Shown here piece after piece: positions 2,645-30,602 of a stretch of 33,027 bases of DNA (positions within the stretch are counted from its first letter, which is position 1; every line of letters starts with the position of its first letter). The notes below the pieces were generated by a model. It searched no databases, was not told the origin of the DNA, and was given only the letters and a program-made list of their open reading frames with translations. The position numbers and the translations under genes were made by a program. The DNA comes from a virus, in IMG/VR virus record IMGVR_UViG_3300021598_000772, positions 1-33,027 of that record; one strand, 5' to 3'.

Positions 2645-2926
2645 ATGAAAAATAAAATTAGACTTTACGAATCTGAAATTAAAAGAGCAGTTAGACGTAA
2701 ATTAATGGAAAGATACATTGATGAAGTAGAACAAATGACAGTTTATGATCAAGACGAATTTAATAGTTCTTTTAATAAATTAGAAAAAGGTTCTTATGGA
2801 GTAAAAGATGATCAAGGTAAGATACGTTCTGTAACAGTGAATGAAGATGATGAGGACTTAGATGATTCACGAATGGTAGGTAGAAATAGAAAAGGGATTA
2901 AACCTTTTAAAGGTAAAAGAAAATGA
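2645..2926 (+). CDS. Small protein with capsid-targeting-like N-terminus
   Basis: This 93-residue charged protein is not a family I know. The N-terminus is basic and ends in RLYES at about residues 6-10, then runs KRAVRRKLMER. This is the same pattern (basic residues, then hydrophobic-x-E followed by S/N/V) seen at the start of several otherwise unrelated genes here. The C-terminus is basic (GRNRKGIKPFKGKRK), compatible with nucleic-acid contact. Its stop overlaps the next start as ATGA. Inference: an internal prohead protein whose leader is cleaved by the gp21-like protease. Confidence 0.75.
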   Translation: MKNKIRLYESEIKRAVRRKLMERYIDEVEQMTVYDQDEFNSSFNKLEKGSYGVKDDQGKIRSVTVNEDDEDLDDSRMVGRNRKGIKPFKGKRK

Positions 2927-3642
2927 AAAAAATAGATATATTAAACGAAGTATTCACTGAAAAACAAAGACGATGGGCTTGTTATCAAATGAATGCACCT
3001 AAATCGGAAAGAGAATTATCTAAAACTAAGGCTACTGAAATGTGTAAAGACGTTAAACATTCTAAAAAAAAGGATGAAAATGTTAAACCAAAGATGAAAA
3101 AAAAAGATTTAGTTGAGTATATTAATAAAAAAATGATTAATATTGTAAAAGAAAATTCTGGTGAGATTTTTATAGTTACTGAAATACCTGCATTAGAAAA
3201 AAAAGAAATATTTAGATTTTTTGAACAATTAAGACAAAGTGGTGTTATCAACATGTTCGGTTCATCCCCAATATTAAATTGGACTAAGGAAGACTTACAT
3301 AGATGGTTATATGGTATGGGTAAAGATGTTGAATCTTTAGAATCTGAAATAGAAGAATTAGAATATGAAATAGAAGAATTAGAATATGATAATGAAGAAG
3401 GTGAAAATGATATTGAGATGTTACAATCTGAATTAAAAAACATTAGACATTTATTAGAAACCATTAACTATTTATTAGAAAATAAAAATAAAATTAGAGA
3501 TATTTTAATAAGGGCAGCTTTAACTAGATTAGAAAATAGAGGTGATAAAGACCCTGAAATAACAAAAGTTCAAAGAGTTTTTGAACAGTTGTCAAAAGAA
3601 TGTTTTAAAATGTGGACAACGGCATTATACGGAAATAGATAA
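2923..3642 (+). CDS. Coiled-coil phage protein with capsid-targeting-like N-terminus
   Basis: This 239-residue protein starts with the basic leader MKKIDILNEV, with a possible cleavage after ILNE. Residues 12-55 carry the stretch EKQRRWACYQMNAP...EMCKDVKHSKK with two Cys; I have the impression that similar segments occur in other phage proteins but cannot name a family. Residues about 145-175 are a regular acidic heptad-like run (EIEELEYEIEELEY) predicting a coiled coil. The start overlaps the upstream stop (ATGA), so translation is probably coupled. The biochemical role is unknown; core or internal head protein is the working inference. Confidence 0.75.
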   Translation: MKKIDILNEVFTEKQRRWACYQMNAPKSERELSKTKATEMCKDVKHSKKKDENVKPKMKKKDLVEYINKKMINIVKENSGEIFIVTEIPALEKKEIFRFFEQLRQSGVINMFGSSPILNWTKEDLHRWLYGMGKDVESLESEIEELEYEIEELEYDNEEGENDIEMLQSELKNIRHLLETINYLLENKNKIRDILIRAALTRLENRGDKDPEITKVQRVFEQLSKECFKMWTTALYGNR

Positions 3643-3656
3643 AATAAATATATACT

Positions 3657-4865
3657 ATGAGAAGAAGAAACATAATTAGTGAAGTTACTAAAAGAGTACT
3701 TTCCGAAAAAGTTAGAATTAGAAGAATAACTGAAGCAATAGAATATGATCCTGAACATCCAGAAAGAATGAATCCTGGGTTAGAAGGTAAACTTAGAAGT
3801 GGTGAACATATTTTCGGTAAAAGTAAATCGTTACCTGTTGGATCCGACATTCAAAATTATTCTGAAAAATTAGCTGGACAAAGGTTTAAAGAAATAATCA
3901 ACAAAGTTAAAAGATATCATGGTGTTAGAAATATTACACCAAATATGATGCAAATGATGTTTCAAATAATGGGTGAAATAAGTCAAATAGAAACTAGACA
4001 TAAAGAGGCGTTAGAAAGATTAGCAGTCGATATAGTATCAGAAGAATTTGATTTACCTGAACAAATGTTAGAGGCTACTTTAAGTCCTCCAGGATCACCA
4101 TTAAGTCATAAAGAAGATGATGAAGAAGAAGATGGTGATGACACTGAATCACCCCAACCTAATATTCCTAAACAACCTAAAAGTGCTAAAAGGATGGAAG
4201 AATTGGAGTTAGAAGTAGATAAAAGGAGAGTAATAAATGCATTAATGCAGGGGGCAGCTAAAAAAGGACACTATATATTTCATATGGTAGCAGATGAATT
4301 AGACGCAATTGATCCAAGATTAATGGGATTATATGGTAAATTAATGTCATTAGCAGATTTCCAATATTGGGTAATTCCTGATACTATGATGACTGGACAA
4401 GTTGGTGGTGTAGAGAAGATAGACTGGAGAAAGGCTGAGAAACCTAAAAATAAAGATGAAGAAGAAGATATGGAAGATGCCAACATAGAAGAAGGTGATG
4501 AAATACCAGTAGTTGTTGCAAAAGCTTGGATATTCCCTCTTTTAGTTCATGAATTAATTAAAGGAGCTTTAGAGTTGGCAGCAATCAATTGGGCAGATGG
4601 TCATTTAGATTTTGATGAACATAAAGAAGTTATCGAAAAGGCTGATACGGATGAAGGTGAAATATGGGGAATGAGATTAGGTCCTGGTATGTGGGAAAAA
4701 TTCTTAGATTGTATTGGTACAGAGAATTATGATATAAAACAATGGTTATTTAAAGAATTAAGTAAATTACCAGCAAAACAATTTCATGATTTTATGAAAG
4801 AAATTTTAAGTGGAAGTCAAAAATGTGGTGAGGTAGTAGATACATTAAAAAAATTACATAACTGA
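3657..4865 (+). CDS. Phage protein with capsid-targeting-like N-terminus, likely missing its C-terminus by frameshift
   Basis: As read, 402 residues. The N-terminus is basic with repeated candidate cleavage motifs (NIISE at 4-8, RVLSE about 13-17, RRITE about 21-25). Residues 138-185 are an acidic, Pro-rich linker, and the rest is alpha-helical in character, with Trp and acidic patches. The reading frame ends just after an A7 run at 4847-4853. One base fewer would continue into ITEESDEDVDYSKMSKREIE and a further 20 or so residues in the +1 frame. The gene starts 14 bases after its neighbour. No enzymatic motif is visible. Confidence 0.8.
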   Translation: MRRRNIISEVTKRVLSEKVRIRRITEAIEYDPEHPERMNPGLEGKLRSGEHIFGKSKSLPVGSDIQNYSEKLAGQRFKEIINKVKRYHGVRNITPNMMQMMFQIMGEISQIETRHKEALERLAVDIVSEEFDLPEQMLEATLSPPGSPLSHKEDDEEEDGDDTESPQPNIPKQPKSAKRMEELELEVDKRRVINALMQGAAKKGHYIFHMVADELDAIDPRLMGLYGKLMSLADFQYWVIPDTMMTGQVGGVEKIDWRKAEKPKNKDEEEDMEDANIEEGDEIPVVVAKAWIFPLLVHELIKGALELAAINWADGHLDFDEHKEVIEKADTDEGEIWGMRLGPGMWEKFLDCIGTENYDIKQWLFKELSKLPAKQFHDFMKEILSGSQKCGEVVDTLKKLHN

Positions 4866-4986
4866 AGAATCTGATGAGGACGTTGACTATTCTAAAATGT
4901 CTAAAAGAGAAATAGAAACTTTAATTAATCAAGCGTTAGATGCAGGTGATTTTGATTTAGTGGAAAAATTACATAAATATATGTAA
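4852..4986 (+). pseudogene. Probable out-of-frame C-terminus of the preceding gene
   Basis: In the +1 frame relative to the preceding gene, an open stretch begins in the A7 run and encodes about 44 residues, ending EKLHKYM before TAA. It includes SKREIETLINQALDAGDFDL, a helical segment that looks like a genuine protein tail rather than random translation. An internal ATG at 4897 could make it a separate 29-residue gene, but the continuous frame back to the A run favours a single split gene. Causes could be a sequencing error in the homopolymer, a real mutation, or slippage during transcription or translation. Confidence 0.6.
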
Positions 4987-5004
4987 AATTTTAATAAAAA
5001 AGTT

Positions 5005-5037
5005 AATCCCATATTAATAATATGGGATTTTTTTTTA
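5005..5037 (+). terminator. Rho-independent terminator
   Basis: A perfect 11-base-pair stem (AATCCCATATT / AATATGGGATT) with a 3-base loop is followed by a run of T. It lies 19 bases after the TAA at 4984-4986, which supports the frameshifted tail being the true gene end. It closes the first + strand transcription unit. Confidence 0.9.
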
Positions 5038-5044
5038 TCTAATA

Positions 5045-5053
5045 ATATTTATT
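5045..5053 (+). promoter_or_regulatory. Candidate phage late promoter, motif ATATTTATT
   Basis: The motif lies between the upstream terminator and the ATG at 5059, only 5 bases from the start codon. If it acts as a -10 element, the transcript would be nearly leaderless. Its position directly behind a terminator makes a promoter here likely. Confidence 0.55.
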
Positions 5054-5058
5054 ACTAT

Positions 5059-6075
5059 ATGAGAAATATTATAAAAAAAATATTAAGAGAAAGTACTGAA
5101 ACACCTAAAAGAGTTTTTAGGTATATAGATAGTATTGTAGAACATTTTGAATGGGACATAGATTCAATAATGGAAGATTTGGAACAAAATTTAAATCTGT
5201 CAAAGGTTGACGCATATACTTTGTTATTTGAATATTATATCAGTAAGGGTGATGACCCAACAAAAGACATTGATTTTCAGGATATAACTTACTATGTATA
5301 TACAGAAGATTTACTTAAAATATTAAATAATAGTGGTTGGTTAGATAAATATCTAAAAAATAAAGACTCATTTCCAAGAGATTTTAGAGACATTGAGGAG
5401 ATTGGTGATGGTGAAAGATTTATTCTTAAACTTGATGATTGGGAGGAGTTTAAATGTTTATTTGATGATGATAATTTGGCGCAAAGAGTTTTAAATTCTG
5501 ATTGGGCAGAACTATATGGTTGGTTTGATGTTGATTTCTCAGATGATATTGTAGATATATTAAATAAAGACACAATAAAACATATTCAAGAATATGTAAA
5601 AGAAAAAGGTTTAATAGGTAAGGAACTAGAAAATAGTGATGGTGAGGTGTTAACAGAAGAAATGGTTAATGATGAGGGTATTTTACTAGAACTGATAGGT
5701 GAAGATGAATTATTTTATGATTTAAAAGATCTTTTAGAAGATGCATATAGAGTCTCATACGATTCTGCTGCCGAAGATGAAATTTTTAAAATATTAGAAG
5801 GTCATATAACTTCTTTTTTTGGTAACAAACCTGAATGGGTAGATGGAAACAAATTACATATAGATGTTACTACAATTTTTTACGACTTTTTAGTTAGGTA
5901 TTTAACCAATAAGGGTGAAATGCCTAGTTTTTCACAAAGTTACTTCTTGGATGTAATTTGTGAAACTTTAGAAGAAGAAGACGGAAAATTAATTACGCCC
6001 GATATGGGTTACTTTTATCCTGATAGTGATTTAGTTGCAGAACATTTAAGTGACTACATAAAATCTAATATATGA
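5059..6075 (+). CDS. Acidic phage protein with capsid-targeting-like N-terminus
   Basis: This 338-residue protein is not recognised. It begins MRNIIKKILRES, a basic amphipathic leader with a gp21-like site after ILRE. The remainder is highly acidic, rich in Asp, Glu, Leu and aromatic residues, and predicted mostly helical, with no membrane segment or catalytic motif that I can see. It is preceded by a terminator and a candidate late promoter, so it begins a new transcription unit. Its stop overlaps the ATG of a 17-codon peptide (ATGA). Inference: internal head protein delivered to the prohead by its leader. Confidence 0.8.
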   Translation: MRNIIKKILRESTETPKRVFRYIDSIVEHFEWDIDSIMEDLEQNLNLSKVDAYTLLFEYYISKGDDPTKDIDFQDITYYVYTEDLLKILNNSGWLDKYLKNKDSFPRDFRDIEEIGDGERFILKLDDWEEFKCLFDDDNLAQRVLNSDWAELYGWFDVDFSDDIVDILNKDTIKHIQEYVKEKGLIGKELENSDGEVLTEEMVNDEGILLELIGEDELFYDLKDLLEDAYRVSYDSAAEDEIFKILEGHITSFFGNKPEWVDGNKLHIDVTTIFYDFLVRYLTNKGEMPSFSQSYFLDVICETLEEEDGKLITPDMGYFYPDSDLVAEHLSDYIKSNI

Positions 6076-6206
6076 AAATAATTATAACCGAAAATCAATA
6101 TAAAAGATTATTATCTGAAGAATAAATAGGGACAGGTAACAATGTTACATACACATTTGGTCCAAACTACGATGAATGGGAAAATGGTAATCTGATTGCT
6201 TTTTAA
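6072..6206 (+). pseudogene. 17-codon capsid-targeting-like peptide plus in-frame remnant after a stop
   Basis: ATG at 6072 overlaps the previous stop (ATGA) and encodes MKIIITENQYKRLLSEE, then TAA at 6123-6125. The same frame then stays open for 26 more codons (GTGNNVTYTFGPNYDEWENG and a few further residues) to a second stop at 6204-6206. The first part is a minimal version of the leader motif seen on neighbouring proteins (IITEN and LLSE sites). The second part looks like real protein. The simplest reading is a decayed gene with a nonsense codon and possibly a deleted middle. A functional short peptide or stop readthrough are alternatives. Confidence 0.6.
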
Positions 6207-6215
6207 TCTATAACC

Positions 6216-6224
6216 ATATTTATA
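6216..6224 (+). promoter_or_regulatory. Candidate phage late promoter, motif ATATTTATA
   Basis: The motif ends 11 bases before the terminase ATG at 6236. An overlapping TATAAATA also matches the T4 late consensus. It lies in the short gap after the leader-peptide remnant. Confidence 0.5.
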
Positions 6225-6235
6225 AATAAAATGTT

Positions 6236-8029
6236 ATGGAAAGAGCGGAACAATTAAAAGTATATGCTCGTAGTTTAGGTGACCCAATTTATGCAATAGA
6301 AACTTTTTTAAAAACATTCGATTTAACTCAAAGTGGCAACGTTCCATTTAAATTATTTTATAAACAAAAAGAAATAATTAAATCGTATGAAAAGTATAAT
6401 CGTAATTTGGTAACTAAACCTCGACAGGCAGGTGTATCCACTACCACTGCCGCATATATCGCAGTTAAAACTGCATTTGGTGATCCAGATAACCCACATA
6501 AAGTATTGATATTAGCCAACAAACAAACATTGGCACAAGAATTCCTTAAAAAAGTTAAAGACTTTTTAGATCAAATACCTTATTGGGTGTGGGGATTAGA
6601 TGAAGATACAGATTATTTAGAAATAAATTCAAAAGGACATTTAAAGTTAAAATCAAATGGTTGTGAAATTAGAGCACTTGCAACTTCTAAAGATGCGTTA
6701 AGGGGTTTTACTCCGACATTTTTAGTTATGGACGAGGCGGCGTTTATCGATAATGGTTCTGAAGTTTTTGGTGCGGCGTTGGCTTCATTAGGTACGGGTG
6801 GTAAAATATCCCTTATATCTACACCAAACGGTATGGATCCATTGTATTATAAAACATATGATGGTGCTAAGAAAAAAGACAATAATTTCAATATAGTTGA
6901 GATGAAATGGTATCAAGATGTTAGATATAATAGAAACTTATATTGGAAAAGAGGTGAAGAAGAAACTATTAAATGTAATACTTTAGATAGAACTAAATTG
7001 AGGTGGGAATATATGGATAAAATATATGAAACTGATGAATCTACTATAGAGTATTATGAAATAATGATTAAAGATGGTTGGAAACCATTATCCCCTTGGT
7101 ATGAAGAAATGGCGGCAGATATGGGGGATGCTAAAAAAATCGCACAAGAACTTGATGTTTCATTTATTGGTTCAGGGGGTAACGTAGTAGATGATGAATA
7201 TATCTCATATCACGAAGAAAATTATGTTAAAGATCCTGAATTTTCTGCAGAAGTGGAAAAATCTATGTGGATATGGAAAAAACCAGAAGTTGGTCACAAA
7301 TATATTATGGGTGTCGATGTAAGTAGAGGTGATGGTAAAGATAGTTCTACAATAGTAATTTTAGATTTTGAAAATTTAGAACAGGTGGCAGAATTCCAAC
7401 ATAAATTACCTCCCGATATGTTAGCAGAAATAGTCTATAAGTATGGTAATATGTATAATGCTTACACTATAGTAGATATAACTGGTGGTATGGGTGTTGC
7501 AACAGTTTTAAAGTTGTTGGAGATGGATTACAAACATTTACATTATGATGATCCAAAAAGTAGGAAACTTAGTGAAAAATATGCCAAAATGAAATATAAG
7601 GAAGGTGAAAAAGTTCCTGGTTTTAATGTAGGTAATACTAGATTACAAATGGTTTCTGAATTAGAAGAACATATTAGAGAAAATAAAACTTTAATTAGAT
7701 CACAAAGAATGATATCGGAGTTAAGAACTTTTGTATATAAAAATGGTAGACCCGATCATATGGAAGGTTATCATGACGATATTATTATGGCTTTCGCTAT
7801 GTGTATTTTTGTGGTACAAACATCATTCAAAAAATTAGAACAAGTTGAAAAACAAACAAAGGCTATGTTAGAGAGTTGGGTTAATATTTCTAATGATAAT
7901 CCCTCAAAACCATTAATGGATAATACTTATGTTAACCCTTTTTATAGTAACACACCAACATATCACCCAAAACAAAATAATGAGACAAATGATAATGGTG
8001 AATATAACTGGTTATTCGGTATTAAATAA
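6236..8029 (+). CDS. 17: Large terminase subunit, T4 gp17-like (packaging ATPase and nuclease)
   Basis: This 597-residue protein is the packaging motor that binds the portal, pumps DNA into the prohead and cuts concatemers. The ATPase half has Walker A at residues 61-69 (KPRQAGVST), Walker B at 162-170 (FLVMDEAAF, with the DE pair) and the coupling motif STPNG at 195-199. The nuclease half shows the RNase H-like acidic residues: D361 in MGVDVSRGDG, D414 in IVDITGG, and HDD at 513-515. Length is close to T4 gp17. The portal gene follows after 49 bases. Unlike T4, the sheath and tube genes 18 and 19 are not between 17 and 20. No intein or frameshift is seen. Confidence 0.97.
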   Translation: MERAEQLKVYARSLGDPIYAIETFLKTFDLTQSGNVPFKLFYKQKEIIKSYEKYNRNLVTKPRQAGVSTTTAAYIAVKTAFGDPDNPHKVLILANKQTLAQEFLKKVKDFLDQIPYWVWGLDEDTDYLEINSKGHLKLKSNGCEIRALATSKDALRGFTPTFLVMDEAAFIDNGSEVFGAALASLGTGGKISLISTPNGMDPLYYKTYDGAKKKDNNFNIVEMKWYQDVRYNRNLYWKRGEEETIKCNTLDRTKLRWEYMDKIYETDESTIEYYEIMIKDGWKPLSPWYEEMAADMGDAKKIAQELDVSFIGSGGNVVDDEYISYHEENYVKDPEFSAEVEKSMWIWKKPEVGHKYIMGVDVSRGDGKDSSTIVILDFENLEQVAEFQHKLPPDMLAEIVYKYGNMYNAYTIVDITGGMGVATVLKLLEMDYKHLHYDDPKSRKLSEKYAKMKYKEGEKVPGFNVGNTRLQMVSELEEHIRENKTLIRSQRMISELRTFVYKNGRPDHMEGYHDDIIMAFAMCIFVVQTSFKKLEQVEKQTKAMLESWVNISNDNPSKPLMDNTYVNPFYSNTPTYHPKQNNETNDNGEYNWLFGIK

Positions 8030-8045
8030 CATTTAATTTTTTAAG

Positions 8046-8054
8046 ATATTTATT
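8046..8054 (+). promoter_or_regulatory. Candidate phage late promoter, motif ATATTTATT
   Basis: The motif lies in the terminase-portal gap, 24 bases before the portal ATG. The leader between motif and ATG is A-rich without a Shine-Dalgarno sequence. Confidence 0.5.
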
Positions 8055-8078
8055 ATAATAGTAATAAAATAAAATATA

Positions 8079-10007
8079 ATGGCAAAAAAGACAATATTCC
8101 AGCAATTGACAGATTTATTCGGTCCAGAAGTGAAAAGGGAACAAAATAAATCTAGATATTCAATTAACGATAAAGAGTTATTACGAACCAAATCAAAGGA
8201 AGAATACGAATTTGAGAAATTAAAAAAACAACAAGACGCCTACCTTTCAAATATGTGGCAAAAGGTTGATAATGAAATTTACCAGCATTCGATTTATTAT
8301 GAAACAACTAGATTAGCGTCGTACGCAGATTTTGAGGGTATGGAATTTTTTCCAGAAATTTCTGCAGCATTAGATATTATGATGGAAGAATCTACTACTT
8401 TAAATTCAGAAAATAAAATGATTACTATTTTTTCCGAAAGTAAAAGGGTTAGAAGGATATTAGAGGATTTATTTTTTAATCGATTAGATATACACACATC
8501 ATTACCTATGTGGACAAGAAATACATGTAAATATGGTGATAATTTTTTATTCCTAAATATTGATAGTGAAGATGGAATTTTAGGTGTTAAACAACTACCT
8601 AATATTGAAATATCTAGAAAAGAAAATGAAGGATTTGGTGAAAACTCTATGAACTCTGATACGGATAAGTATAATCCTGTAAAATTTATTTGGGGACAAA
8701 GGGATATAGAATTTAATGCGTGGCAAGTTGCACATTTTAGACTTTTGGGGGATGATAGAAGATTACCTTACGGCACATCAATGTTAGAAAAGGCTAGAAG
8801 GATATGGAAACAATTACTATTATCAGAAGACGCAATGTTAATATATAGAGTAACAAGGGCACCTGAAAGAAGGATATTTAAAATCTATGTCGGTAACATT
8901 GATGAACAAGATGTTCCTGCATATGTAAACAAAATCGCAAATAATTTTAAAAGAAGTCCTGTTATTGATCAAAAAACTGGACAAATAGATTCTAGATATA
9001 ATCAAATGGCACAGGATCAGGATTATTTTATACCTGTAAGGGATCCTAACGCACCTAGTCCAATAGATACACTACCTGGAGCAACTAATTTATCTGAAAT
9101 TGCAGATATACAATATTTACAAAAAAAGTTATTCACATCACTTAGGGTACCTAAACCTTTTTTAGGTTTTGAGGAGGCAAATGGTGAAGGTAAAAATTTA
9201 GCGTTACAAGATATTAGATTTGCTAGAACAATTAATAGGATACAACAATCAATGTTGCAAGAATTAAATAAAATTGCTATCATACATTTATATATTTTAG
9301 GTTTAGAGGATGAATTAGAGAATTTTACCCTTACACTTAACAACCCATCAACACAGGCAGAAATGCTTAAAGTAGAACAAACACAATTAAAAGTTACTTT
9401 ATATAAAGACGCAGTTGCAGATGCGGGTAACGGTTTTGGTGCAATGTCAATGACTAGAGCTAAAAAAGAAATTTTAGGTATGTCAGAAGAAGAAATTAGA
9501 AATGATTTAGAACAACAAAGATTAGAAAAGGCGGCAGCTGCGGAAATGGAACAAACGGCTGAAGTTATTAAAAAGACAGGTATCTTCGATAGAGTAGATA
9601 GATTATATGGTGATTTTGACGCATTAGTGTCAGGTGCTGGAGAAGCTGAAGCGGGTGGTGACACTGGAGGTGGTGACACTGGTGGTTTAGGTTCAGACAC
9701 TGGTGGTTTAGGCGGTGGTGACACTGGTGGTTTAGGCGGTGGTGCAGAATCTGGTGGTGCAGAATCTGGTGGTGCCGCACCAACAGAAGAGTCTACTAAT
9801 AAAAAAGATAATCTATTATTAGAAACTAAAAAAAGAAATTACGAAGAAAAAGTTAAAAGATATCAGGGTATATATTTGAAAAGATTGACTGAAAGTTTAG
9901 AAAAAAATGAGAACAATTATAATTTAGAATCATTTGAAAAAAGTGCTGATACCCTTAATTCTAAAATCAATGAGATTACAAATCAAATTGACAATATGAT
10001 TAATTAA
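8079..10007 (+). CDS. 20: Portal vertex protein, T4 gp20-like
   Basis: This 642-residue protein forms the dodecameric channel at the head vertex and nucleates prohead assembly. Identity rests on the T4 gene order (17, 20, core, 21, 22, 23) and on segments typical of gp20: an N-terminal YQHSIYYETTRLASYADFEG stretch near residue 68, IDTLPGATNLSEIADIQY near 328, and the RVPKPFLGFEE region near 360. It is longer than T4 gp20 (about 520 residues). The excess is a Gly/Asp/Thr/Ser repeat tract at about 523-567 (DTGG, GGL, AESGG units) followed by a charged helical tail with LLLET and RLTES motifs that resemble gp21 sites. The tail could be removed or bind scaffold; that is inference. Confidence 0.93.
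   Translation: MAKKTIFQQLTDLFGPEVKREQNKSRYSINDKELLRTKSKEEYEFEKLKKQQDAYLSNMWQKVDNEIYQHSIYYETTRLASYADFEGMEFFPEISAALDIMMEESTTLNSENKMITIFSESKRVRRILEDLFFNRLDIHTSLPMWTRNTCKYGDNFLFLNIDSEDGILGVKQLPNIEISRKENEGFGENSMNSDTDKYNPVKFIWGQRDIEFNAWQVAHFRLLGDDRRLPYGTSMLEKARRIWKQLLLSEDAMLIYRVTRAPERRIFKIYVGNIDEQDVPAYVNKIANNFKRSPVIDQKTGQIDSRYNQMAQDQDYFIPVRDPNAPSPIDTLPGATNLSEIADIQYLQKKLFTSLRVPKPFLGFEEANGEGKNLALQDIRFARTINRIQQSMLQELNKIAIIHLYILGLEDELENFTLTLNNPSTQAEMLKVEQTQLKVTLYKDAVADAGNGFGAMSMTRAKKEILGMSEEEIRNDLEQQRLEKAAAAEMEQTAEVIKKTGIFDRVDRLYGDFDALVSGAGEAEAGGDTGGGDTGGLGSDTGGLGGGDTGGLGGGAESGGAESGGAAPTEESTNKKDNLLLETKKRNYEEKVKRYQGIYLKRLTESLEKNENNYNLESFEKSADTLNSKINEITNQIDNMIN
9650..9780 (+). repeat. Short tandem repeats coding Gly/Asp/Thr-rich linker in the portal
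   Basis: Repeated GGTGGTGACACTGG- and GGTGCAGAATCTGG-type units encode DTGG, GGL and ESGGA motifs in the C-terminal part of the portal gene. The tract is more G-rich than its surroundings and likely arose by slippage. Confidence 0.8.
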
Positions 10008-10025
10008 TTTTTTTACATTTAATCT

Positions 10026-10034
10026 ATATTTATT
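10026..10034 (+). promoter_or_regulatory. Candidate phage late promoter, motif ATATTTATT
   Basis: The motif ends 12 bases before the ATG at 10047, in the 39-base gap after the portal gene. Confidence 0.5.
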
Positions 10035-10046
10035 AATAAAAATACT

Positions 10047-10808
10047 ATGGAAAATTTTGGGAATATAAAAGACACATTTAAAAAAATAATTTTAGAATCT
10101 GTGATCAAAAAAGATGAGGACGGCAAAAAATTATTTACTTCATTTATAAAAAATTTAAAAGAGAATAAAACACTTAAAAACCAATTCTTAATATATAAAA
10201 ATTTAGAGAGTAGAAAATTTGAGGATAGACTAGAGGCTAAAGAATATATACAAGAAAATATTAAATTACTTAAAGAATTAAATAGTGAAGATATTGAGAA
10301 AGGTAACTCAAAATTAATTAATCTTTTAAAAGGTAAAAAAATAGTAAAAGAAAATGATTCTTTTTATAAAGATATCACATATCTAAGTAGAGTTACTAAA
10401 ACACCTTCAAACATAGATAAAATAAATGAATCTATGAATAATTTAGTTAATCATATGTTAACTAAAGTTGATGAGGTTAGTAAAACAGATAATGTCGCAA
10501 TTTCACCAACAATTTTAACTAATTTGATGGTTAATAAATTTAATGAAAAATATAGTGAAATTAGTGAGTCAGATAAAAAGTTAATTAAATCTTTCTTAAA
10601 CGATGATAAAGAAAAAACTTTTAATAGTTTAATTAGAGAATGTATTGATTCTGTAGATAAAAAATTAAATGAAAGTAGTGATTTTGAAATCAAAGATAAA
10701 CTTTTAAAAGTAAAAGATAAATTATTAAATACAAAATTCGATAAAGATAATTTCTTAAATGATATAATTAAATTTAATAATCTTAAAGAAACAATAAATA
10801 ACGAATAA
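10047..10808 (+). CDS. Putative prohead core protein in the T4 gene 67/68 position
   Basis: This 253-residue, Lys-rich, strongly helical protein lies between portal and prohead protease, where T4 has the small core genes 67 and 68. I see no sequence motif proving homology, so the call is positional. The N-terminus carries KKIILES at about residues 12-18, the same leader pattern found on the unknown genes at 2645-6125, with a possible gp21-type cleavage after ILE. Its internal repeats of Lys/Asp/Leu suggest coiled coils. A candidate late promoter precedes it and a strong terminator follows 3 bases after the stop. Confidence 0.65.
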   Translation: MENFGNIKDTFKKIILESVIKKDEDGKKLFTSFIKNLKENKTLKNQFLIYKNLESRKFEDRLEAKEYIQENIKLLKELNSEDIEKGNSKLINLLKGKKIVKENDSFYKDITYLSRVTKTPSNIDKINESMNNLVNHMLTKVDEVSKTDNVAISPTILTNLMVNKFNEKYSEISESDKKLIKSFLNDDKEKTFNSLIRECIDSVDKKLNESSDFEIKDKLLKVKDKLLNTKFDKDNFLNDIIKFNNLKETINNE

Positions 10809-10811
10809 ATT

Positions 10812-10837
10812 AACCCTCTTAGTGAGGGTTTTTTTTT
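10812..10837 (+). terminator. Rho-independent terminator
   Basis: A 7-base-pair GC-containing stem (AACCCTC / GAGGGTT) with a 5-base loop is followed by a T run. It directly follows the core-like gene and separates it from a sigma70-like promoter just downstream. Confidence 0.9.
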
Positions 10838-10845
10838 AACATAAT

Positions 10846-10874
10846 TTGACAATTTAATTTTTTTTTAGTATACT
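10846..10874 (+). promoter_or_regulatory. Sigma70-like promoter TTGACA-N17-TATACT
   Basis: A perfect -35 hexamer TTGACA (10846-10851) and a one-mismatch -10 hexamer TATACT (10869-10874) are separated by exactly 17 bases. The same bases also nearly fit the Bacteroidota primary-sigma pattern: TTTG (10845-10848), 20 bases, then TATACTTTT against TAnnTTTG. It lies immediately after a terminator and before the small cassette 10915-11353, which lacks the candidate late motif. It would be read by host polymerase, perhaps early. Confidence 0.6.
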
Positions 10875-10914
10875 TTTACCAAATTTAAATAACAAAATAT
10901 GATTAGAAAGATTA

Positions 10915-11124
10915 ATGAAATTAGGAAAAGAGATAAAATTAGATTTATTAGAAAATTATAAAACTAAAATAGGGACAGTTAACAACAAAGAATCAAAAAG
11001 TTTATATTTAAACTTTACCGCTTGGGGGGAAATATTAGAAGATAATAAAGAACAAAATTATGACACTTTTTTAAGTGGTGTCAGAAAAAAAAATAAAACA
11101 AAACTTAAACAACAATCTCGATAA
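10915..11124 (+). CDS. N-terminal part of a small phage protein, probably split by a frameshift
   Basis: As read, 69 residues. The first 56 or so (through NFTAWGEILED and YDTFLSGV) look like a normal protein, but the last 10 residues after an A9 run (11085-11093) are Lys/Gln-only and look spurious. Removing one A joins this frame to the following one and gives a single protein of about 145 residues. The family is not recognised. It follows a sigma70-like promoter rather than a late motif. The start ATG has an A-rich context without Shine-Dalgarno; another ATG at 10899 is in a different frame that soon closes. Confidence 0.6.
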   Translation: MKLGKEIKLDLLENYKTKIGTVNNKESKSLYLNFTAWGEILEDNKEQNYDTFLSGVRKKNKTKLKQQSR

Positions 11125-11353
11125 AAATTTATTCTTTAATGATAGGTATATCGTAGATTTAGATATGAGAACTTCAGGATTCAACATAAATAAAAGGAGT
11201 TTTATGTCGTGTGAAATCACACTATTCCAGAAAAAGAATCTACCTATCAATCAAACAATAATACTTGAAAATTCAAAAAACATTATTTATGATGTAATAA
11301 ATAATTGTTTTGAAGGTAATAACGTTTTTAAATTTCATAAGTCTAAAAAATAA
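11084..11353 (+). CDS. C-terminal part of the same small phage protein, in the +1 frame
   Basis: This frame opens before the A9 run and encodes about 90 residues, beginning EKKIKQNLNNNLDKNLFFND, with the well-formed segments YIVDLDMRTSGF and RSFMSCEITLFQ. Read alone it would need a GTG start (11075 or 11078) inside the preceding frame or an ATG at 11165. Both are less natural than a fusion with the upstream frame through VRKK. Function unknown. A candidate late promoter for the protease gene starts 18 bases after its stop. Confidence 0.6.
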   Translation, partial: EKKIKQNLNNNLDKNLFFNDRYIVDLDMRTSGFNINKRSFMSCEITLFQKKNLPINQTIILENSKNIIYDVINNCFEGNNVFKFHKSKK

Positions 11354-11371
11354 TCTTTTTACTATAATGAT

Positions 11372-11380
11372 ATATTTATA
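11372..11380 (+). promoter_or_regulatory. Candidate phage late promoter, motif ATATTTATA
   Basis: The motif ends 19 bases before the protease ATG at 11400, in a 46-base gap. Confidence 0.5.
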
Positions 11381-11399
11381 TTAAAACTATATCATTATT

Positions 11400-12089
11400 A
11401 TGGAAATTTTAAAAAAAAACGATATCAAAAAAAAAGGTATCCTCATCGAATATGATGCAGGATACATTTCTCCAAAAGATAATAGACATTTTGTAAACGA
11501 AGTAAATAAATTAACTCAAGGTCAACCTATAATAGAAGAACCTTTAGTTGTTTACGCAGTTATGCAAAAATATGGGGTAGAAAATAGAAATGAAAGAGTT
11601 TACCCTGAAGCCATTTTACGAAGAGAGGCAGAAAATTATTTAAAATTAATCAAAGAAAAAAGAGCGTTAGGTGAGGCGGATCATCCAGAATCATCTATAG
11701 TTGCGATAAGTAGGATTTCTCACAATGTAGTTGATTTGTGGTGGGAAGGTAATGTCCTTATGGGTAAATTAGAAATAATTATGTCACCAGGATTTGTCAA
11801 TCAAGGTATTATTTCTTGTGAGGGTGATAAAGTTGCAAATTATATTAGAAAAGGTTTAAAGATTGGTGTTTCTTCCAGAGGTGTTGGGTCATTAGAAAAA
11901 GAAAATGGTAGAAATGTTGTACAAGACGATTTTGAATTAATTTGTTGGGATATCGTTACATCACCATCAACTCCGGGATCTTGGATATATAGTGAAGAAC
12001 CTTCTAAAGAACAACAAATGTCTGAGTCTACTAATAAGAAAAATTCTGATGATTTGAAAAATGGGTTAACTAATTTTTTAATGGATTAA
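11400..12089 (+). CDS. 21: Prohead core protease, T4 gp21-like serine protease
   Basis: This 229-residue protein has the herpesvirus-assemblin-like fold expected of gp21, which digests scaffold and trims capsid proteins before packaging. The catalytic His is H95 in GEADHPE, and the nucleophile is in GVSSRGVGS (S158 or S159). NRNERVYPEAIL near 62-73 is also typical of the family. The length fits T4 gp21. The C-terminus (EEPSKEQQMSESTNKK, 199-214) is polar and holds EEP and SES motifs that could be self-cleaved. Position between portal/core and scaffold matches T4 exactly. Many proteins in this window carry plausible (L/I)xE target sites. Confidence 0.95.
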   Translation: MEILKKNDIKKKGILIEYDAGYISPKDNRHFVNEVNKLTQGQPIIEEPLVVYAVMQKYGVENRNERVYPEAILRREAENYLKLIKEKRALGEADHPESSIVAISRISHNVVDLWWEGNVLMGKLEIIMSPGFVNQGIISCEGDKVANYIRKGLKIGVSSRGVGSLEKENGRNVVQDDFELICWDIVTSPSTPGSWIYSEEPSKEQQMSESTNKKNSDDLKNGLTNFLMD

Positions 12090-12120
12090 TAAAAAAAATT
12101 AAACTTTTTAAAAAACTAGC

Positions 12121-12129
12121 ATATTTATA
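12121..12129 (+). promoter_or_regulatory. Candidate phage late promoter, motif ATATTTATA
   Basis: The motif lies 59 bases before the scaffold ATG, the longest leader of the set. The leader contains a 16-base palindrome and an A-rich stretch. It would drive both scaffold and capsid genes. Confidence 0.5.
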
Positions 12130-12134
12130 ATTAA

Positions 12135-12150
12135 ATGCAAAATTTTGCAT
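12135..12150 (+). repeat. 16-base perfect palindrome in the scaffold-capsid leader
   Basis: ATGCAAAATTTTGCAT is self-complementary and lies 5 bases downstream of the candidate late promoter, so it is probably at or near the 5' end of the 22-23 transcript. It could be an operator or a small 5' hairpin stabilising the mRNA. It lacks a following T run, so it is not a terminator. Confidence 0.6.
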
Positions 12151-12188
12151 ACATAATAATTTAATAATAAAAAATTAAAAAAAGAAAA

Positions 12189-13496
12189 ATGGCTGAAAAA
12201 AAGAAATCTATCATCGAAGAGGCTTTGCTAGAAGCTAAGTCCTTAGAGGATGCCTTAAAAGCCAACACGAAAGAAATGCTTTCGGCACACTTGTCGAAAG
12301 AAATTGAGAGTATCGTTGAGTCGTCTTTAAAAGAAGAAGATGAAGAATTAGATGACGATGCTAATTTAAAAGGATCCGAAGATGAGAATGAGGTTGAGTT
12401 AGATCTTGACGATGAAGAAAGTACCGAAGAACCAGAAGAAGAGTTAGATCTTGATTCTTTAGAAAATTCAGAAGAACCAGTTGATTTAGATTTAGATGTT
12501 GATTTAGATTTAGATGCTAATGAGGAAGATGAAGATGAGGAAGAAGAAGATTTTAATCTTAATTTAGGTTTAGAACCTGGTGACGATGAGGAAGTGTTAG
12601 ACTTAACAGGTGCTTCAGACGAAGAGGTTATCCATGTGTTTAAAAACAAATTAGGGGATAACGATGAAGTTGAGGTGGTTAAAGATCCAAGTGGTGGTAT
12701 TCATTTAACAGATAACGAAACAGGAGTAGAGTATTACATTAAGGAATCTATGGGAGATAGATTTGGTTTTGAGGAAGAAGATGAAGAAGAAGAAAAAGAG
12801 TATTGCTCTGAATGTGGGTCAGGATCAATGTATGAAAATGATGAAACAATTTATGAAATTCATTTAGACGAAGATTCTCCAATGTATGAAATGTTTAAGG
12901 ATAAAACCGAAGAAAACTATGATGCAATGGGTGAAGGGGCTTACATTGATGAGGAAGATACACTTGATGAGGACAGATTGCAAAGACACAGAAGAAGTGG
13001 TGGAAAACAAAGATATCACGGAGCTAGATTTGCAGCAAGAGAATCTAAAAATGTTCGTAAACCTTTAATCACTAAAAAACCAAACACAGACACAGTTTCC
13101 GAGTCAAAAATAATTAAAGAATATAGAGAGCTTAAAGCTAAAAATGAAGAATATAAAAAGGCTCTTAATATATTCAAAGACAAACTTAATGAAGTTGCTT
13201 TATTTAATACCAACTTAGCGTATGTTAATAGATTGTTCACAGAACATTCTACAACAAAGAATGAAAAGATGGATATTTTAAAAAGATTTGATAATGCAGA
13301 AACTATTAAAGAATCTAAAAATATTTATAAAACGATAAAAACTGAGTTGGATAATAAAAAACCAATTAATGAGTCTGTTCAAAATAAAGTTAATAAAACA
13401 GTAAAATCTTATAATACTAATAATTTGAACGAATCAACTGCATATGTTGATCCACAAATTACGGCTATTAAAGATTTGATGAGAAGAATCTCATAA
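12189..13496 (+). CDS. 22: Prohead scaffold core protein, T4 gp22-like
   Basis: This 435-residue protein is the main internal scaffold of the prohead, later degraded by gp21. Position between protease and capsid genes fixes the call. The C-terminal part (about 305-390), with KIIKEYRELKAKNEEYKKAL and ALFNTNLAYVNRLFTEHST, matches the helical gp22 domain I expect. It is much longer than T4 gp22 (about 270): residues 45-260 are an added, extremely acidic low-complexity region with one CSEC pair (206-209). Candidate gp21 sites are abundant (IKES at 184-187 and 373-376, INES at 393-396, LNES at 413-416). The leader is A-rich without Shine-Dalgarno, consistent with strong expression in Bacteroidota. 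Confidence 0.92.
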   Translation: MAEKKKSIIEEALLEAKSLEDALKANTKEMLSAHLSKEIESIVESSLKEEDEELDDDANLKGSEDENEVELDLDDEESTEEPEEELDLDSLENSEEPVDLDLDVDLDLDANEEDEDEEEEDFNLNLGLEPGDDEEVLDLTGASDEEVIHVFKNKLGDNDEVEVVKDPSGGIHLTDNETGVEYYIKESMGDRFGFEEEDEEEEKEYCSECGSGSMYENDETIYEIHLDEDSPMYEMFKDKTEENYDAMGEGAYIDEEDTLDEDRLQRHRRSGGKQRYHGARFAARESKNVRKPLITKKPNTDTVSESKIIKEYRELKAKNEEYKKALNIFKDKLNEVALFNTNLAYVNRLFTEHSTTKNEKMDILKRFDNAETIKESKNIYKTIKTELDNKKPINESVQNKVNKTVKSYNTNNLNESTAYVDPQITAIKDLMRRIS

Positions 13497-13534
13497 TAAA
13501 TAATAATAAAATAACAAAACAAAAAAAATAAAAA

Positions 13535-15274
13535 ATGGGACATTTGTTAAATTCTGGTGAAGTCGGTAATATTGGACTTGAGCACCTAAAGCAAATTAGA
13601 TCTAAAACTATTACTAAATGGAATTCATTAGGATTCTTAGATGGTTTAAAAGGTCATATTAAAGAGAACATCGCACAGTTGTATGAAAACCAAGCGTCTG
13701 CTCTATTGAACGAATCAACTGATGCTGGTTCTTCTGGATCATTCGAAACAGTTGTTTTCCCAATTGTAAGAAGAGTATTCTCTAAATTATTGGCTAACGA
13801 CATCGTATCGGTACAAGCGATGAACATGCCAATCGGTAAATTATTCTATTTCGTACCTAAAACATCTAACGGTTCATTTGACTTAAATGGTAATGCAACT
13901 AACGGTTCTTTACCTGAATGTGTTGTATCTGGATGTGGTGTTACGGTAACTGAATTTAGAGCAAAAAATCTTTACGATTTATTTTACAATGATGGATTAT
14001 TTGACGCATCTAAAGGTAAAAAAACAGTTTATAATGGTGGTTTAAGACCAGTAGTTTTAAATTCTGATGGTGAAAAAGTTACTACTGCATTTGCTAGTCA
14101 ACCAAAAGCGGCTGATGGTTCATTTAGAAACCTTAAAGCGGCTATCACTGGTTTTTCTTCAACAAACGCTGGTAGATTAACTGGACCAGACGGAAATGAG
14201 ATGGATACTGAATCTTTCTTAGCGTCATTAACACTTACTTCTGATAACGCAATCTTAGATAAAGATGGTAAAACTATCATTAGTGCTGGTGGTGTAGTTC
14301 CTTTCAGATTAGTAAGTCAAAAATATGGTAGAGGTATCGTAGATTACACTAACATTTGTAGTCCTGATGGAGAACTTTTGGTAGAGTTAGATTTAACTCA
14401 CCCAGCATGTATCGATTGTGGTTCTTCTAACTTTGATGGTTATATTGGAGCTGCTAGTGGTACATCATTTACAGGTTTATCTGTATCTTGGTCTAGATAT
14501 GAAACATTAGAATTCGCTACAGAAATGGGTGAAGTATCTTTTGAATTAGATGAGGTAGTTGTATCGGTTACTGAAAGAAAACTAAGAGCTACTTGGTCTC
14601 CTGAATTAGCACAAGACGTTAGTGCATTCCATAACATTGATGCTGAGGCTGAACTTACGGCTTTATTGTCTGAGCAGGTTGCTGCTGAGATCGATAGAGA
14701 GATCTTAAGAGATTTAAGAAAAGGAGCGGCTTGGCAATTGAGATGGGATTACAACGGATGGAAAAGAGCTAATAACGGTGGTGGTTTCAACGCATACACT
14801 CAAAAAGAGTGGAATCAAACGTTGATTACTAAAGTTAACCAAATCTCTGCTCAAATCCATAAATCAACTTTGAGAGGTGGAGCAAACTTTATCGTTGTTT
14901 CTTCTGAAGTATCAGCAATTTTCGATGATTTAGAATACTTCCACGTATCAAACGCTTCTCCAGAGCAAGATCAATACAATATGGGTATTGAGAAAATTGG
15001 TTCATTAGGTGGTAGATATACTGTGTATAGAGATCCATACGCACCAGCTAACTCAATAATCATTGGACATAAAGGTAAGTCATTGTTAGATACAGGGTAC
15101 ATTTACGCACCTTACGTACCTCTTCAATTGACTCCAACATTACAAAATCCATTCAACTTCGCACCTACTAAGGGTATCATGACGAGATACGCTAAGAAAA
15201 TGGTGAACAACAGATTCTACGGAACTGTTACTGTTGACGGAGTTGTAACTTTTGATTTAAATGAATTAAGATAA
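13535..15274 (+). CDS. 23: Major capsid protein precursor, T4 gp23-like
   Basis: This 579-residue protein forms the head shell. Landmarks shared with T4 gp23 are the ENQ segment at 51-53, VQAMNMPIG at 93-101 (T4 VQPMNSPTG), and the C-terminal run TGYIYAPYVPLQ and KGIMTRYAKK. The predicted maturation cut follows LLNE at residues 57-60, close to the T4 cut after E65, leaving STDAGSSG as the new N-terminus. An insertion domain holds several Cys (CVVSGCG near 128-134, ACIDCGSS near 290). The base composition is more balanced than in its neighbours (many optimal-looking codons), as expected for the most abundant protein. It shares a 38-base A-rich spacer with the scaffold gene and ends at a terminator. 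Confidence 0.97.
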   Translation: MGHLLNSGEVGNIGLEHLKQIRSKTITKWNSLGFLDGLKGHIKENIAQLYENQASALLNESTDAGSSGSFETVVFPIVRRVFSKLLANDIVSVQAMNMPIGKLFYFVPKTSNGSFDLNGNATNGSLPECVVSGCGVTVTEFRAKNLYDLFYNDGLFDASKGKKTVYNGGLRPVVLNSDGEKVTTAFASQPKAADGSFRNLKAAITGFSSTNAGRLTGPDGNEMDTESFLASLTLTSDNAILDKDGKTIISAGGVVPFRLVSQKYGRGIVDYTNICSPDGELLVELDLTHPACIDCGSSNFDGYIGAASGTSFTGLSVSWSRYETLEFATEMGEVSFELDEVVVSVTERKLRATWSPELAQDVSAFHNIDAEAELTALLSEQVAAEIDREILRDLRKGAAWQLRWDYNGWKRANNGGGFNAYTQKEWNQTLITKVNQISAQIHKSTLRGGANFIVVSSEVSAIFDDLEYFHVSNASPEQDQYNMGIEKIGSLGGRYTVYRDPYAPANSIIIGHKGKSLLDTGYIYAPYVPLQLTPTLQNPFNFAPTKGIMTRYAKKMVNNRFYGTVTVDGVVTFDLNELR

Positions 15275-15300
15275 TCTTAATTTAAAATAAAGGTAAAAAG

Positions 15301-15326
15301 GGGTAGAAATTTTCTACCCTTTTTTA
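15301..15326 (+). terminator. Rho-independent terminator after the capsid gene
   Basis: A 9-base-pair stem (GGGTAGAAA / TTTCTACCC) with a one-base nominal loop (in practice 3-5 bases) is followed by T6 and more T. It closes the 22-23 transcription unit 26 bases after the stop codon. Confidence 0.88.
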
Positions 15327-15335
15327 TTTTTTATA

Positions 15336-15344
15336 ATATTTATT
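15336..15344 (+). promoter_or_regulatory. Candidate phage late promoter, motif ATATTTATT
   Basis: The motif lies between the capsid terminator and the ATG at 15360, with 15 bases to the start codon. A new promoter is needed here because of the terminator. Confidence 0.55.
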
Positions 15345-15359
15345 ATTATATTTGTATCT

Positions 15360-16196
15360 ATGAGAATTAAAAAGAAATACGTATTGTTAGAATCTAGGTT
15401 AATAGATGTCACATCAGAATTTACTCCACAAGAAAAAAGAATTTTAGAAATGTTATATAAAAAATATGGTGTAAGTACATCAGATTTTAATATGTGGAAT
15501 GTTGCAATAGAATTAATAGAGGACTTTAATTTAGACTACGAAACTGCATATTCTTTAGCGAGAACATTTAGTTGGTCCGCTAGAGAACTATTTTCAGAAT
15601 TCCAACCAATACGTAAAACTATGCCAGTTTATAAATTATTTTTTGAGAATATTTCTAATTTAATTGAAAGTTATTCCAAAAATAATGAAAATAATTTTAC
15701 TGTTAGATTAAAATTTAACGGTGATGTTGGTACAGAATCATTAGAAAATAGAGAGGTGTCATTAAATTCAGGTTATAGGGGTTTCTATATGTATATACCT
15801 CTAGAACAATATATAGAAACAGAATATAGGAGATATTACGTCACAGGTGAAGATCATGACTTCAGAACTTTATCTGTATCAATAAATTTTAACCCAATAG
15901 ATTTAAACGGTGAAATACGTGAATTAAGTTATTTTAGTTCAGATGAGAGTGAAGATGTAAATACAGAAGAATTTATGGTATCTGTAAAGTATAGAGACAT
16001 CACCCAATCTATATATGATGATTCAAGTCAAACAAAATTAATGTCATTTAAAGTACCTTACCCTAAACCTTTAACTAAAGAAAATATTTTAAATACATTC
16101 GATTCAATTATAAAAGATGTTTTAGAATATATGTCTAATACAACATTTGATTTACCTGAAGGGGCAAAACCAATAGATATAAATGATTTAATGTAA
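15360..16196 (+). CDS. Phage protein with capsid-targeting-like N-terminus
   Basis: This 278-residue protein is not recognised. It starts MRIKKKYVLLESRLIDVTSE, another basic leader with the (L/I)xE-S pattern (cut expected after LLE). Residues 20-85 look helical and the central and C-terminal parts more beta-rich, with acidic patches. No catalytic motif or membrane segment is visible. It follows the capsid gene, where T4 has the vertex gene 24, but I see no gp24 resemblance. It is the last + strand gene and its stop overlaps the stop of the convergent gene by 9 bases. Confidence 0.78.
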   Translation: MRIKKKYVLLESRLIDVTSEFTPQEKRILEMLYKKYGVSTSDFNMWNVAIELIEDFNLDYETAYSLARTFSWSARELFSEFQPIRKTMPVYKLFFENISNLIESYSKNNENNFTVRLKFNGDVGTESLENREVSLNSGYRGFYMYIPLEQYIETEYRRYYVTGEDHDFRTLSVSINFNPIDLNGEIRELSYFSSDESEDVNTEEFMVSVKYRDITQSIYDDSSQTKLMSFKVPYPKPLTKENILNTFDSIIKDVLEYMSNTTFDLPEGAKPIDINDLM

Positions 16197-22436: not shown

Positions 22437-23213
22437 TTATACTTCATATGTTATTTCTCTATCTTCAGTAAAAAAATATTCTTTTTTGGCTTTGTTAACC
22501 CAAAATTTACTTTCTAAAACATCAATACTATTTTTATATTCCACAAAAAGAGATCCTTCTCTATTGTTAGTGTGTTTATATCCTAATCTAGGGATTACCA
22601 TAACTGGAACTGAAAAATATGTCATTCTTAATAAGAATTCATATGTGAAAGTTAATTTTACGTTATTTTTTAACCCACCATATTCTTCATAAACTTCTTT
22701 TTTGACTACCATACCATCAAAATTAAAGTTCTGAACTCTTTGTAAAACATTATTATCTAAAAAACCACTTTCTTCAGTAAAATCTTTTGCCCACACACTT
22801 TCGTTAGTAAAAGAAATAAATCTACCGTTTTCATCAGTTTCATAAATTATTGGTAAAAACACACCAACTTCAGAATAATGTTTAATATATTCTTTAGCAC
22901 TCTTAATCCAAATAGGTGAAATCTCATCGTCATATTCTACAAACGTAAAATAGTCTGATGTAGACTGTTTAACCCCATAATTGACTTGCGATTGAAATCC
23001 ATAGTCCTTAGTTTCATTTTTTACAATTTTTACTAAATCTTTAATATCACCAAAATCATAATTGTTTAAATAATCATCAAGATCAGTATCTTCTGATACT
23101 ACAAATAAAACTTCATTCGGTTTTTCTTTTTGATTTTTGATACTTAAAATACATGAATCTAAATATGTTTTTTCTAATTTATGTACTGGTACTATTACTG
23201 AAATACTACTCAT
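22437..23213 (-). CDS. Family 2 glycosyltransferase
   Basis: This 258-residue protein has a GT-A fold signature: MSSISVIVPVHKLEKTYLDS at the start (nucleotide-sugar binding strand), VLFVVSEDTDLDDY near 35-48, and an acidic motif FTFVEYDDEISP at about 90-101 in the place of the usual DxD. It transfers a sugar from a nucleotide donor to an unknown acceptor. It lies 9 bases upstream of the sigma gene and downstream of another glycosyltransferase, as the final gene of the glycan locus. No membrane segment, so it is cytoplasmic. Confidence 0.88.
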   Translation of the reverse strand: MSSISVIVPVHKLEKTYLDSCILSIKNQKEKPNEVLFVVSEDTDLDDYLNNYDFGDIKDLVKIVKNETKDYGFQSQVNYGVKQSTSDYFTFVEYDDEISPIWIKSAKEYIKHYSEVGVFLPIIYETDENGRFISFTNESVWAKDFTEESGFLDNNVLQRVQNFNFDGMVVKKEVYEEYGGLKNNVKLTFTYEFLLRMTYFSVPVMVIPRLGYKHTNNREGSLFVEYKNSIDVLESKFWVNKAKKEYFFTEDREITYEV

Positions 23214-23257
23214 ATTTTTATATTTTTTTATTTTGTTATTATTTAATTTTCTATTTT

Positions 23258-30601: not shown

Positions 30602-30602
30602 A

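What the first reader, a model, noticed from the sequence alone, without database searches (positions are those of the whole stretch)
2645..15419. A shared N-terminal leader on many unrelated proteins: candidate capsid-targeting, protease-cleaved peptides
Seven genes start with a short basic stretch that ends in (L/I)xE, or a near variant, followed by S, N or V: RLYES (2645), DILNEV (2923), NIISEV (3657), KILRES (5059), IITEN (6072), IILES (10047), VLLES (15360). The 620-residue protein at 374 has LNES at residue 29. Beyond the leader the proteins are unrelated. In T4, internal head proteins carry an N-terminal capsid-targeting sequence cut by gp21 after a hydrophobic-x-E. The capsid (LLNE|S) and scaffold (LNES, INES, IKES) here carry the same motif. 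This suggests a large set of head-loaded cargo proteins, perhaps injected with the DNA, encoded around the packaging genes. Six of the seven flank or lie within the head operon.
Basis: partly seen in the sequence, partly recalled or inferred. Interest (0 to 1): 0.8.

Follow-up and report, generated by a model that had tools for sequence, protein, structure and literature searches.

The report
Shared cleavable tags on phage proteins
This phage and its many relatives attach a few short, interchangeable N-terminal tags to dozens of otherwise unrelated proteins, each tag ending where the phage's own head protease probably cuts, which looks like a shipping label that loads proteins into the virus head and could be used to find proteins injected into bacteria.

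Summary
In the window, 7 of 15 head-strand genes carry (L/I)xE(S/N/V) within 20 residues; shuffling gives 0.8. Only 1 of 21 genes on the other strand does.

One leader family, MKK(I/V)(I/V)RLTESDLxRIVKRVIxE, occurs on 91 unrelated protein bodies in IMG/VR. Residues not fixed by the search stay conserved up to Glu22, and conservation vanishes right after it. Other families also end in hydrophobic-x-E. Codon data show selection on the peptide, not the DNA.

The S77 (gp21-like) protease has T4's catalytic His/Ser/Asp. The capsid site LLNE|S aligns with T4 gp23 FLTE|A and gp24 LLRE|S. One body family carries either of two leaders in different phages. Some ORFs fuse two bodies around an internal leader.

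Best reading: T4-like capsid-targeting propeptides, cut by the S77 protease. Cleavage, packaging and injection are inferred.

Corrections: 6072 is a decayed gene (leader, stop, C-terminal scrap). In 3657 the conserved site is RITE26|A, not NIISE|V. 10047 sits where T4 has gp67/gp68 and is more likely core than cargo. 374 also has a conserved site.

This is a new variant of a known kind, at unusual scale.

The parts
374..466 (+). leader of the 620-aa acidic protein; predicted cut TLNE31|S32
   Evidence: hydrophobic-x-E kept at about the same alignment position in the related proteins of L010, G004, G005, G007
2645..2710 (+). type A 22-residue leader MKNKIRLYESEIKRAVRRKLME of the 93-aa protein (gene 2645-2926)
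   Evidence: PSSM score 31.6 against threshold 12; in the leader component with 30 body clusters
2923..2949 (+). leader MKKIDILNE|V of the 239-aa protein (gene 2923-3642)
   Evidence: sequence; a second site FTE13|K follows; no ortholog keeps this N-terminus, so the weakest of the set
3657..3734 (+). leader of the 402-aa protein (gene 3657-4865); predicted cut RITE26|A27
   Evidence: 25/25 orthologs with intact N-terminus have hydrophobic-x-E|(A/S/G/N) at this column although upstream length varies widely; AlphaFold confidence about 50 for residues 1-30, 80 and more after
5059..5091 (+). type B short leader MRNIIKKILRE|S of the 338-aa protein (gene 5059-6075)
   Evidence: same form as the short leaders that replace leader A on the RYMFFSNLEQ body family
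6072..6206 (+). decayed leader gene: MKIIITENQYKRLLSEE, stop, then 26 codons of C-terminal remnant
   Evidence: blastp to L028, L002, L005, G002 proteins of 274-283 aa at the same locus
10047..10097 (+). leader MENFGNIKDTFKKIILE|S of the 253-aa protein (gene 10047-10808), probable prohead core protein
   Evidence: 54 orthologs, position between portal and protease as T4 gp67/gp68; five further internal sites
15360..15392 (+). leader MRIKKKYVLLE|S of the 278-aa protein (gene 15360-16196)
   Evidence: E11 invariant in 8 orthologs; AlphaFold residues 1-10 pLDDT below 50, folded from about residue 13
11400..12089 (+). S77 (T4 gp21-like) prohead protease
   Evidence: PF03420 E 2.6e-24, PHROG 207 E 1e-41; H95, S158, D184 align with T4 gp21 H85, S140, D168
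12189..13496 (+). scaffold protein (gp22 position) with six internal (L/I)xE(S/N/V) sites
13535..13714 (+). propeptide of the major capsid protein, predicted cut LLNE60|S61
   Evidence: aligned with T4 gp23 FLTE65|A and gp24 LLRE10|S; site kept in the orthologs

Best explanation
The leaders work like the capsid-targeting propeptides of T4. A short basic, partly amphipathic N-terminal peptide would bring each protein into the prohead core. The phage's S77 prohead protease would then cut after the hydrophobic-x-E that ends the leader, leaving the mature protein in the DNA-filled head. Many of these proteins are then probably ejected with the DNA and act early against host defences or metabolism, as T4 IPI, IPIII and Alt do. 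Shown here: shared leaders on unrelated bodies, selection on the peptide, sharp end at the Glu, match to the capsid site, conserved protease triad. Inferred: head targeting, cleavage, ejection, function of the cargo.
For: Exact-pattern scan of IMG/VR: 151 matches, 146 with at most 30 open codons upstream; 91 body clusters; unforced positions 13-22 carry 1.1-3.4 bits, Glu22 in 86/91, then under 0.4 bit from residue 24. Leader discovery without prior: components of 33 and 15 body clusters at residues 1-38 against at most 2 for internal windows. Three other leader families also end mostly in hydrophobic-x-E. The same body family RYMFFSNLEQ carries leader A or leader B, 19 of 19 with the site. 3657 family: site fixed in 25/25, leader length varies. 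Capsid site aligned to T4, triad conserved 61/62. Codon test: identity 62/75/49% at positions 1/2/3. T4 positive control: the motif scan includes IPI, IPII, IPIII, Alt and gp24 among its hits. S77 protease in 12/15 large contigs picked by leader only; the 484-kb LR756508 has 18/61 leader genes near its capsid gene; a crAss001 stretch used as control has 0/45.
Against: No proteomics. P1' after leader A is often Q, E or N, whereas the capsid site has S, A or T. A-type leaders contain two candidate sites (LTE|S and VIxE|x) and it is not settled which is cut, or whether both are. Some leader-bearing proteins have enzymatic domains such as lysozyme, peptidoglycan binding, SET/DHH whose virion location is unknown. 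The simple two-hydrophobic test shows no excess in T4 and only a modest one in immuto (42 against 28.6). The control without the tag is one partial genome.
Confidence: 0.82

Rival explanations
1. The leader is an uncleaved docking tag for another phage structure or compartment (for example tail, replication compartment or membrane), and the terminal Glu is part of the binding motif.
For: The A leader is conserved along its whole length, not only at the Glu. Leader genes lie all over large genomes. Some cargo is enzymatic.
Against: Several unrelated leader sequences share only the hydrophobic-x-E end. The end equals the capsid cleavage site. AlphaFold leaves the leader disordered outside the fold for 15360 and 3657.
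Confidence: 0.09
2. The leaders are cleaved in the head, but the tagged proteins are mostly structural core or scaffold proteins consumed in head assembly (like T4 gp22, gp67, gp68), not cargo that reaches the host.
For: 10047, 12189 and 374 are in or next to the head operon and have several internal sites. 10047 sits at the gp67/gp68 position.
Against: Most leader proteins have diverse unrelated bodies (91 clusters) and many lie far from head genes; T4 cargo has the same profile.
Confidence: 0.2
3. The similarity is a DNA or RNA element at gene starts (translation or late-promoter signal), or recent duplication of gene starts, with no role for the peptide.
For: Two adjacent genes in G007 have near-identical leader DNA.
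Against: Third codon positions are the least conserved (49%), and identical amino acids use the same codon about as often as codon usage predicts (0.60 against 0.52). Leaders also occur inside and at the C-terminus of ORFs.
Confidence: 0.02
4. Chance: short motif in Glu-, Leu- and Ile-rich proteins.
For: The loose motif alone is common; the excess for the HHxE form over the whole window is small (9 against 6.6).
Against: Shuffled N-termini of head-strand genes, PSSM scan with 62 N-terminal against 0 shuffled hits, 91 bodies.
Confidence: 0.01

Closest known systems
T4 capsid-targeting sequences of IPI, IPII, IPIII and Alt (and the gp24 propeptide), cut by gp21
   Same: Short N-terminal peptide (MKTYQEFIAE|A, MAKINELLRE|S) ending hydrophobic-x-E, on proteins with unrelated bodies, in a phage with an S77 protease and gp23-type capsid (PMC9026906). 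PMC9026906 already proposes the CTS as a general way for T4-like phages to load varied proteins.
   Different: Leader sequences differ; here several families, one 22 residues long with two candidate sites; about 24-34 candidates per large genome against the three IPs and Alt of T4; leaders also inside and at the end of fused ORFs.
phiKZ/SPN3US-type head propeptides
   Same: Homologous protease family cutting after Glu; many head and ejection proteins (PMC5694885).
   Different: SPN3US cuts at A-x-E and several of its propeptides are over 100 residues; here the leaders are short, shared and end hydrophobic-x-E.
P1 DarB capsid targeting
   Same: N-terminal signal (first 30 residues) sufficient for head loading (PMC9024508).
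Polyvalent proteins of phages and plasmids
   Same: Several domains in one transferred polypeptide (PMC5512222).
   Different: Those often rely on embedded peptidase domains; the fused ORFs here have an internal leader with the prohead-protease-like site instead.

Membership tests
T4-type capsid-targeting propeptide | short N-terminal peptide shared by proteins with unrelated bodies | tested here: met
T4-type capsid-targeting propeptide | ends in the cleavage motif of the phage's own prohead protease | tested here: met
   motif matches the capsid site aligned to T4 gp23/gp24; specificity inferred from alignment, not assayed; P1' after leader A is looser
T4-type capsid-targeting propeptide | phage encodes a gp21/S77 protease with His-Ser-Asp triad | tested here: met
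T4-type capsid-targeting propeptide | leader is sufficient for head localisation | not testable with these tools
   needs fusion experiments
T4-type capsid-targeting propeptide | leader is removed in the mature virion | not testable with these tools
   needs N-terminal proteomics
T4-type capsid-targeting propeptide | sequence similarity to the T4 CTS itself (MKTYQEF...) | tested here: not met
   compared by eye only, no alignment statistic: just the hydrophobic-x-E end is shared; type B leaders resemble gp24 MAKINELLRE. So it works like a CTS; common descent of the leader is not shown
S77 prohead protease family (for gene 11400) | Pfam PF03420 above cut-off and catalytic triad | tested here: met
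   86.2 bits against cut-off 27; H95/S158/D184

The most novel reading that the evidence does not exclude
A large group of uncultured T4-like phages runs a modular address-tag system: several interchangeable leader families, all ending in the same protease site, load scores of rapidly exchanging proteins into the head, including fused polyproteins that the head protease separates. The leader then marks, without any annotation, a very large set of candidate injected anti-defence proteins.
Probability: 0.6. Interest if true: 0.85.

Novelty: new variant of a known kind. Interest (0 to 1): 0.72.

Why it matters
T4 IPI inhibits a type IV restriction system and IPIII is needed on some strains (PMC9026906, PMC9391042), yet injected head proteins are hard to recognise because their bodies are fast-evolving and unrelated. 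A readable leader gives a direct sequence test for them across huge numbers of environmental phages, and a candidate tag set for packaging foreign proteins into new phage heads. No paper in the library searched mentions the type A leader sequence, though most subscription papers are not held there.

Tried and rejected
Pfam and PHROGs on the window's leader proteins: no convincing family. Fold searches of 15360 and 3657 against solved structures: nothing significant; one uncharacterised viral match for 3657. tblastn of 23- and 32-residue leader consensus against cultured phages: no hits, uninformative for such short queries. A two-hydrophobic regular expression as a genome-wide test is too loose to show excess in T4. 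Rejected: DNA-level element, chance, signal peptides (they form separate small groups).
Full report
What the window is. The window is the whole of one uncultured virus record of 33,027 bases. The + strand up to 16196 is a T4-like head region: large terminase (6236), portal (8079), S77 prohead protease (11400), scaffold (12189) and gp23-type capsid protein (13535). The protease identification is solid: PF03420 at 86 bits, PHROG head maturation protease, and H95, S158 and D184 aligned with T4 gp21 H85, S140 and D168, conserved in 61 of 62 sequences. The capsid's best cultured match, after an unannotated 484-kb uncultured phage genome, is Flavobacterium phage immuto, about 41% identical over 57%. 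The host of this phage was not tested.

The observation. All seven leaders exist at the stated places. Counting (L/I)xE(S/N/V) within 20 residues gives 7 of 15 + strand genes and 1 of 21 - strand genes; shuffled + strand N-termini give 0.8 on average and never 7. The bodies are not related to each other. Three details change. First, 6072 is not a working gene: a 17-aa leader is followed by a stop and by 26 codons that match the C-terminus of a 274-283-aa family occupying the same place in L002, L003, L005 and L028. Second, 3657 is probably cut at RITE26|A27: in 25 orthologs with an intact N-terminus the hydrophobic-x-E|(A/S/G/N) stays at a nearly fixed place next to the conserved body while the stretch before it ranges from a few residues to several dozen. 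Third, the leader of 2645 runs to Glu22.

Scale. The same scan was applied to 80 IMG/VR loci found by the capsid protein and to long contigs. Grouping proteins whose N-termini match but whose bodies do not gave groups of 33 and 15 body clusters; the same procedure on internal windows never exceeded 2. The largest group (type A) is MKK(I/V)(I/V)RLTESDLxRIVKRVIxE. The others are IxEEEKNRILNLHE...YLxEQ (type D), MKIIITESQY...LLxE (type C) and ...LFxYxRGxVISEQ. They fall into 91 body clusters. At positions the pattern did not fix, conservation is 1.1-3.4 bits up to Glu22 (86 of 91) and below 0.4 from residue 24. Types C and D behave alike, with 23 and 10 body clusters. In a 484-kb uncultured phage (LR756508) a further form, MKxxExxLRxIxKEE, is on 18 of 61 genes around the capsid gene, against 0.2 expected, with 17 separate bodies; a crAss001 stretch, used as a control presumed to lack an S77 protease (not checked), has 0 of 45. 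The 294-kb and 229-kb relatives have 34 and 24 leader-like genes against 6 and 3 expected.

Level of selection. Across pairs of type A leaders on unrelated bodies, nucleotide identity is 62, 75 and 49% at codon positions 1, 2 and 3, and identical residues use the same codon at 0.60 against 0.52 expected. The peptide, not the DNA, is conserved.

Why a protease. The capsid propeptide end LLNE60|S aligns exactly with T4 gp23 FLTE65|A and with T4 gp24 LLRE10|S, and the capsid orthologs keep hydrophobic-x-E followed by S, A or T. Unrelated leader families converge on the same hydrophobic-x-E end. One body family (RYMFFSNLEQM(K/R)RQ) carries the roughly 22-residue leader A in some phages and a short leader B in others, 19 of 19 with the site just ahead of the body. 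Leader B is the form on window gene 5059. Models of 15360 and 3657 leave the leader disordered or poorly predicted and begin a confident fold soon after the predicted cut. Of 15 long contigs checked that were found by the type A pattern, 12 encode an S77 protease; the other three are 107-130 kb and may be incomplete. In T4 the same motif scan has IPI, IPII, IPIII, Alt and gp24 among its hits, together with other proteins; these five are known to carry cleaved propeptides (PMC9026906, PMC5694885).

Fused ORFs. In L029, L038, L063 and L078 one ORF holds a first body, then an internal leader A, then a second body that differs between phages (L029 and L078 share theirs; L038 and L063 have others); in three of the four the first body begins with a type B leader. 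In L064 and L072 leader A is at the C-terminus with little or nothing after it. In L300 a type D leader is followed by a type A leader. These look like gene fusions that a head protease could still separate.

Mechanism. Inferred from T4, where the first 10 residues of IPIII suffice for packaging and processing depends on residues 8 and 10 (PMC9026906): the leader binds the prohead core, the S77 protease removes it, and the body stays in the head and may be ejected. T4 IPI and IPIII act against host defences (PMC9026906, PMC9391042), so such a role is plausible for many bodies but is untested. Most of 86 leader proteins match no Pfam family; single matches include lysozyme, peptidoglycan-binding, SET/DHH and OmpA-like domains.

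Limits. Nothing here shows cleavage, packaging or injection. The residue after the leader A Glu is often Q, E or N rather than S or A, and leader A also contains LTE|S, so the cut site is not settled. 10047 and 374 may be core proteins rather than cargo. Gene starts were taken as first ATG by a simple ORF finder, and body clusters rest on blastp, so distant relatives may be counted apart.

Verdict. The finding is real. It is best filed as working like the T4 capsid-targeting sequence, in new leader families, with fused ORFs and at much larger scale. Descent from the T4 leader itself is not shown.

Noticed in passing
L024:6695-8506 and L011:6522-8258: The S77 protease carries 376- and 349-aa inserts starting with Cys and ending HN(C/S)D immediately before the catalytic His: intein-like, at the active site.
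   Followed up: partly
window 10915-11353: A conserved 145-aa gene of relatives is split between two frames near a run of nine A: frameshift mutation or sequencing error.
   Followed up: yes
L029:6089-6919, L038:14570-16015, L063:12210-13901, L078:7109-8428: One ORF with a first body, an internal leader A and a second body that differs between phages; the second body in L038 is weakly OmpA-like.
   Followed up: partly
L064:5165-5905 and L072:8484-9176: Leader A at the C-terminus of the protein, with a stop soon after.
   Followed up: no
LR756508.1 145000-194999 (L248): A 484-kb uncultured phage has its own leader form MKxxExxLRxIxKEE on 18 of 61 genes near the capsid gene.
   Followed up: partly
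L095:16449-18692 (G007:216449-218695): A leader-bearing 748-aa protein with a significant SET and a weak DHH domain match: an unusual candidate head cargo.
   Followed up: no
window 22437-32950, - strand: Genes that look by eye like glycosyltransferases and sugar epimerases, around a PhoH-like ATPase (25528); none carry the leader except one chance-level motif at 23258.
   Followed up: no
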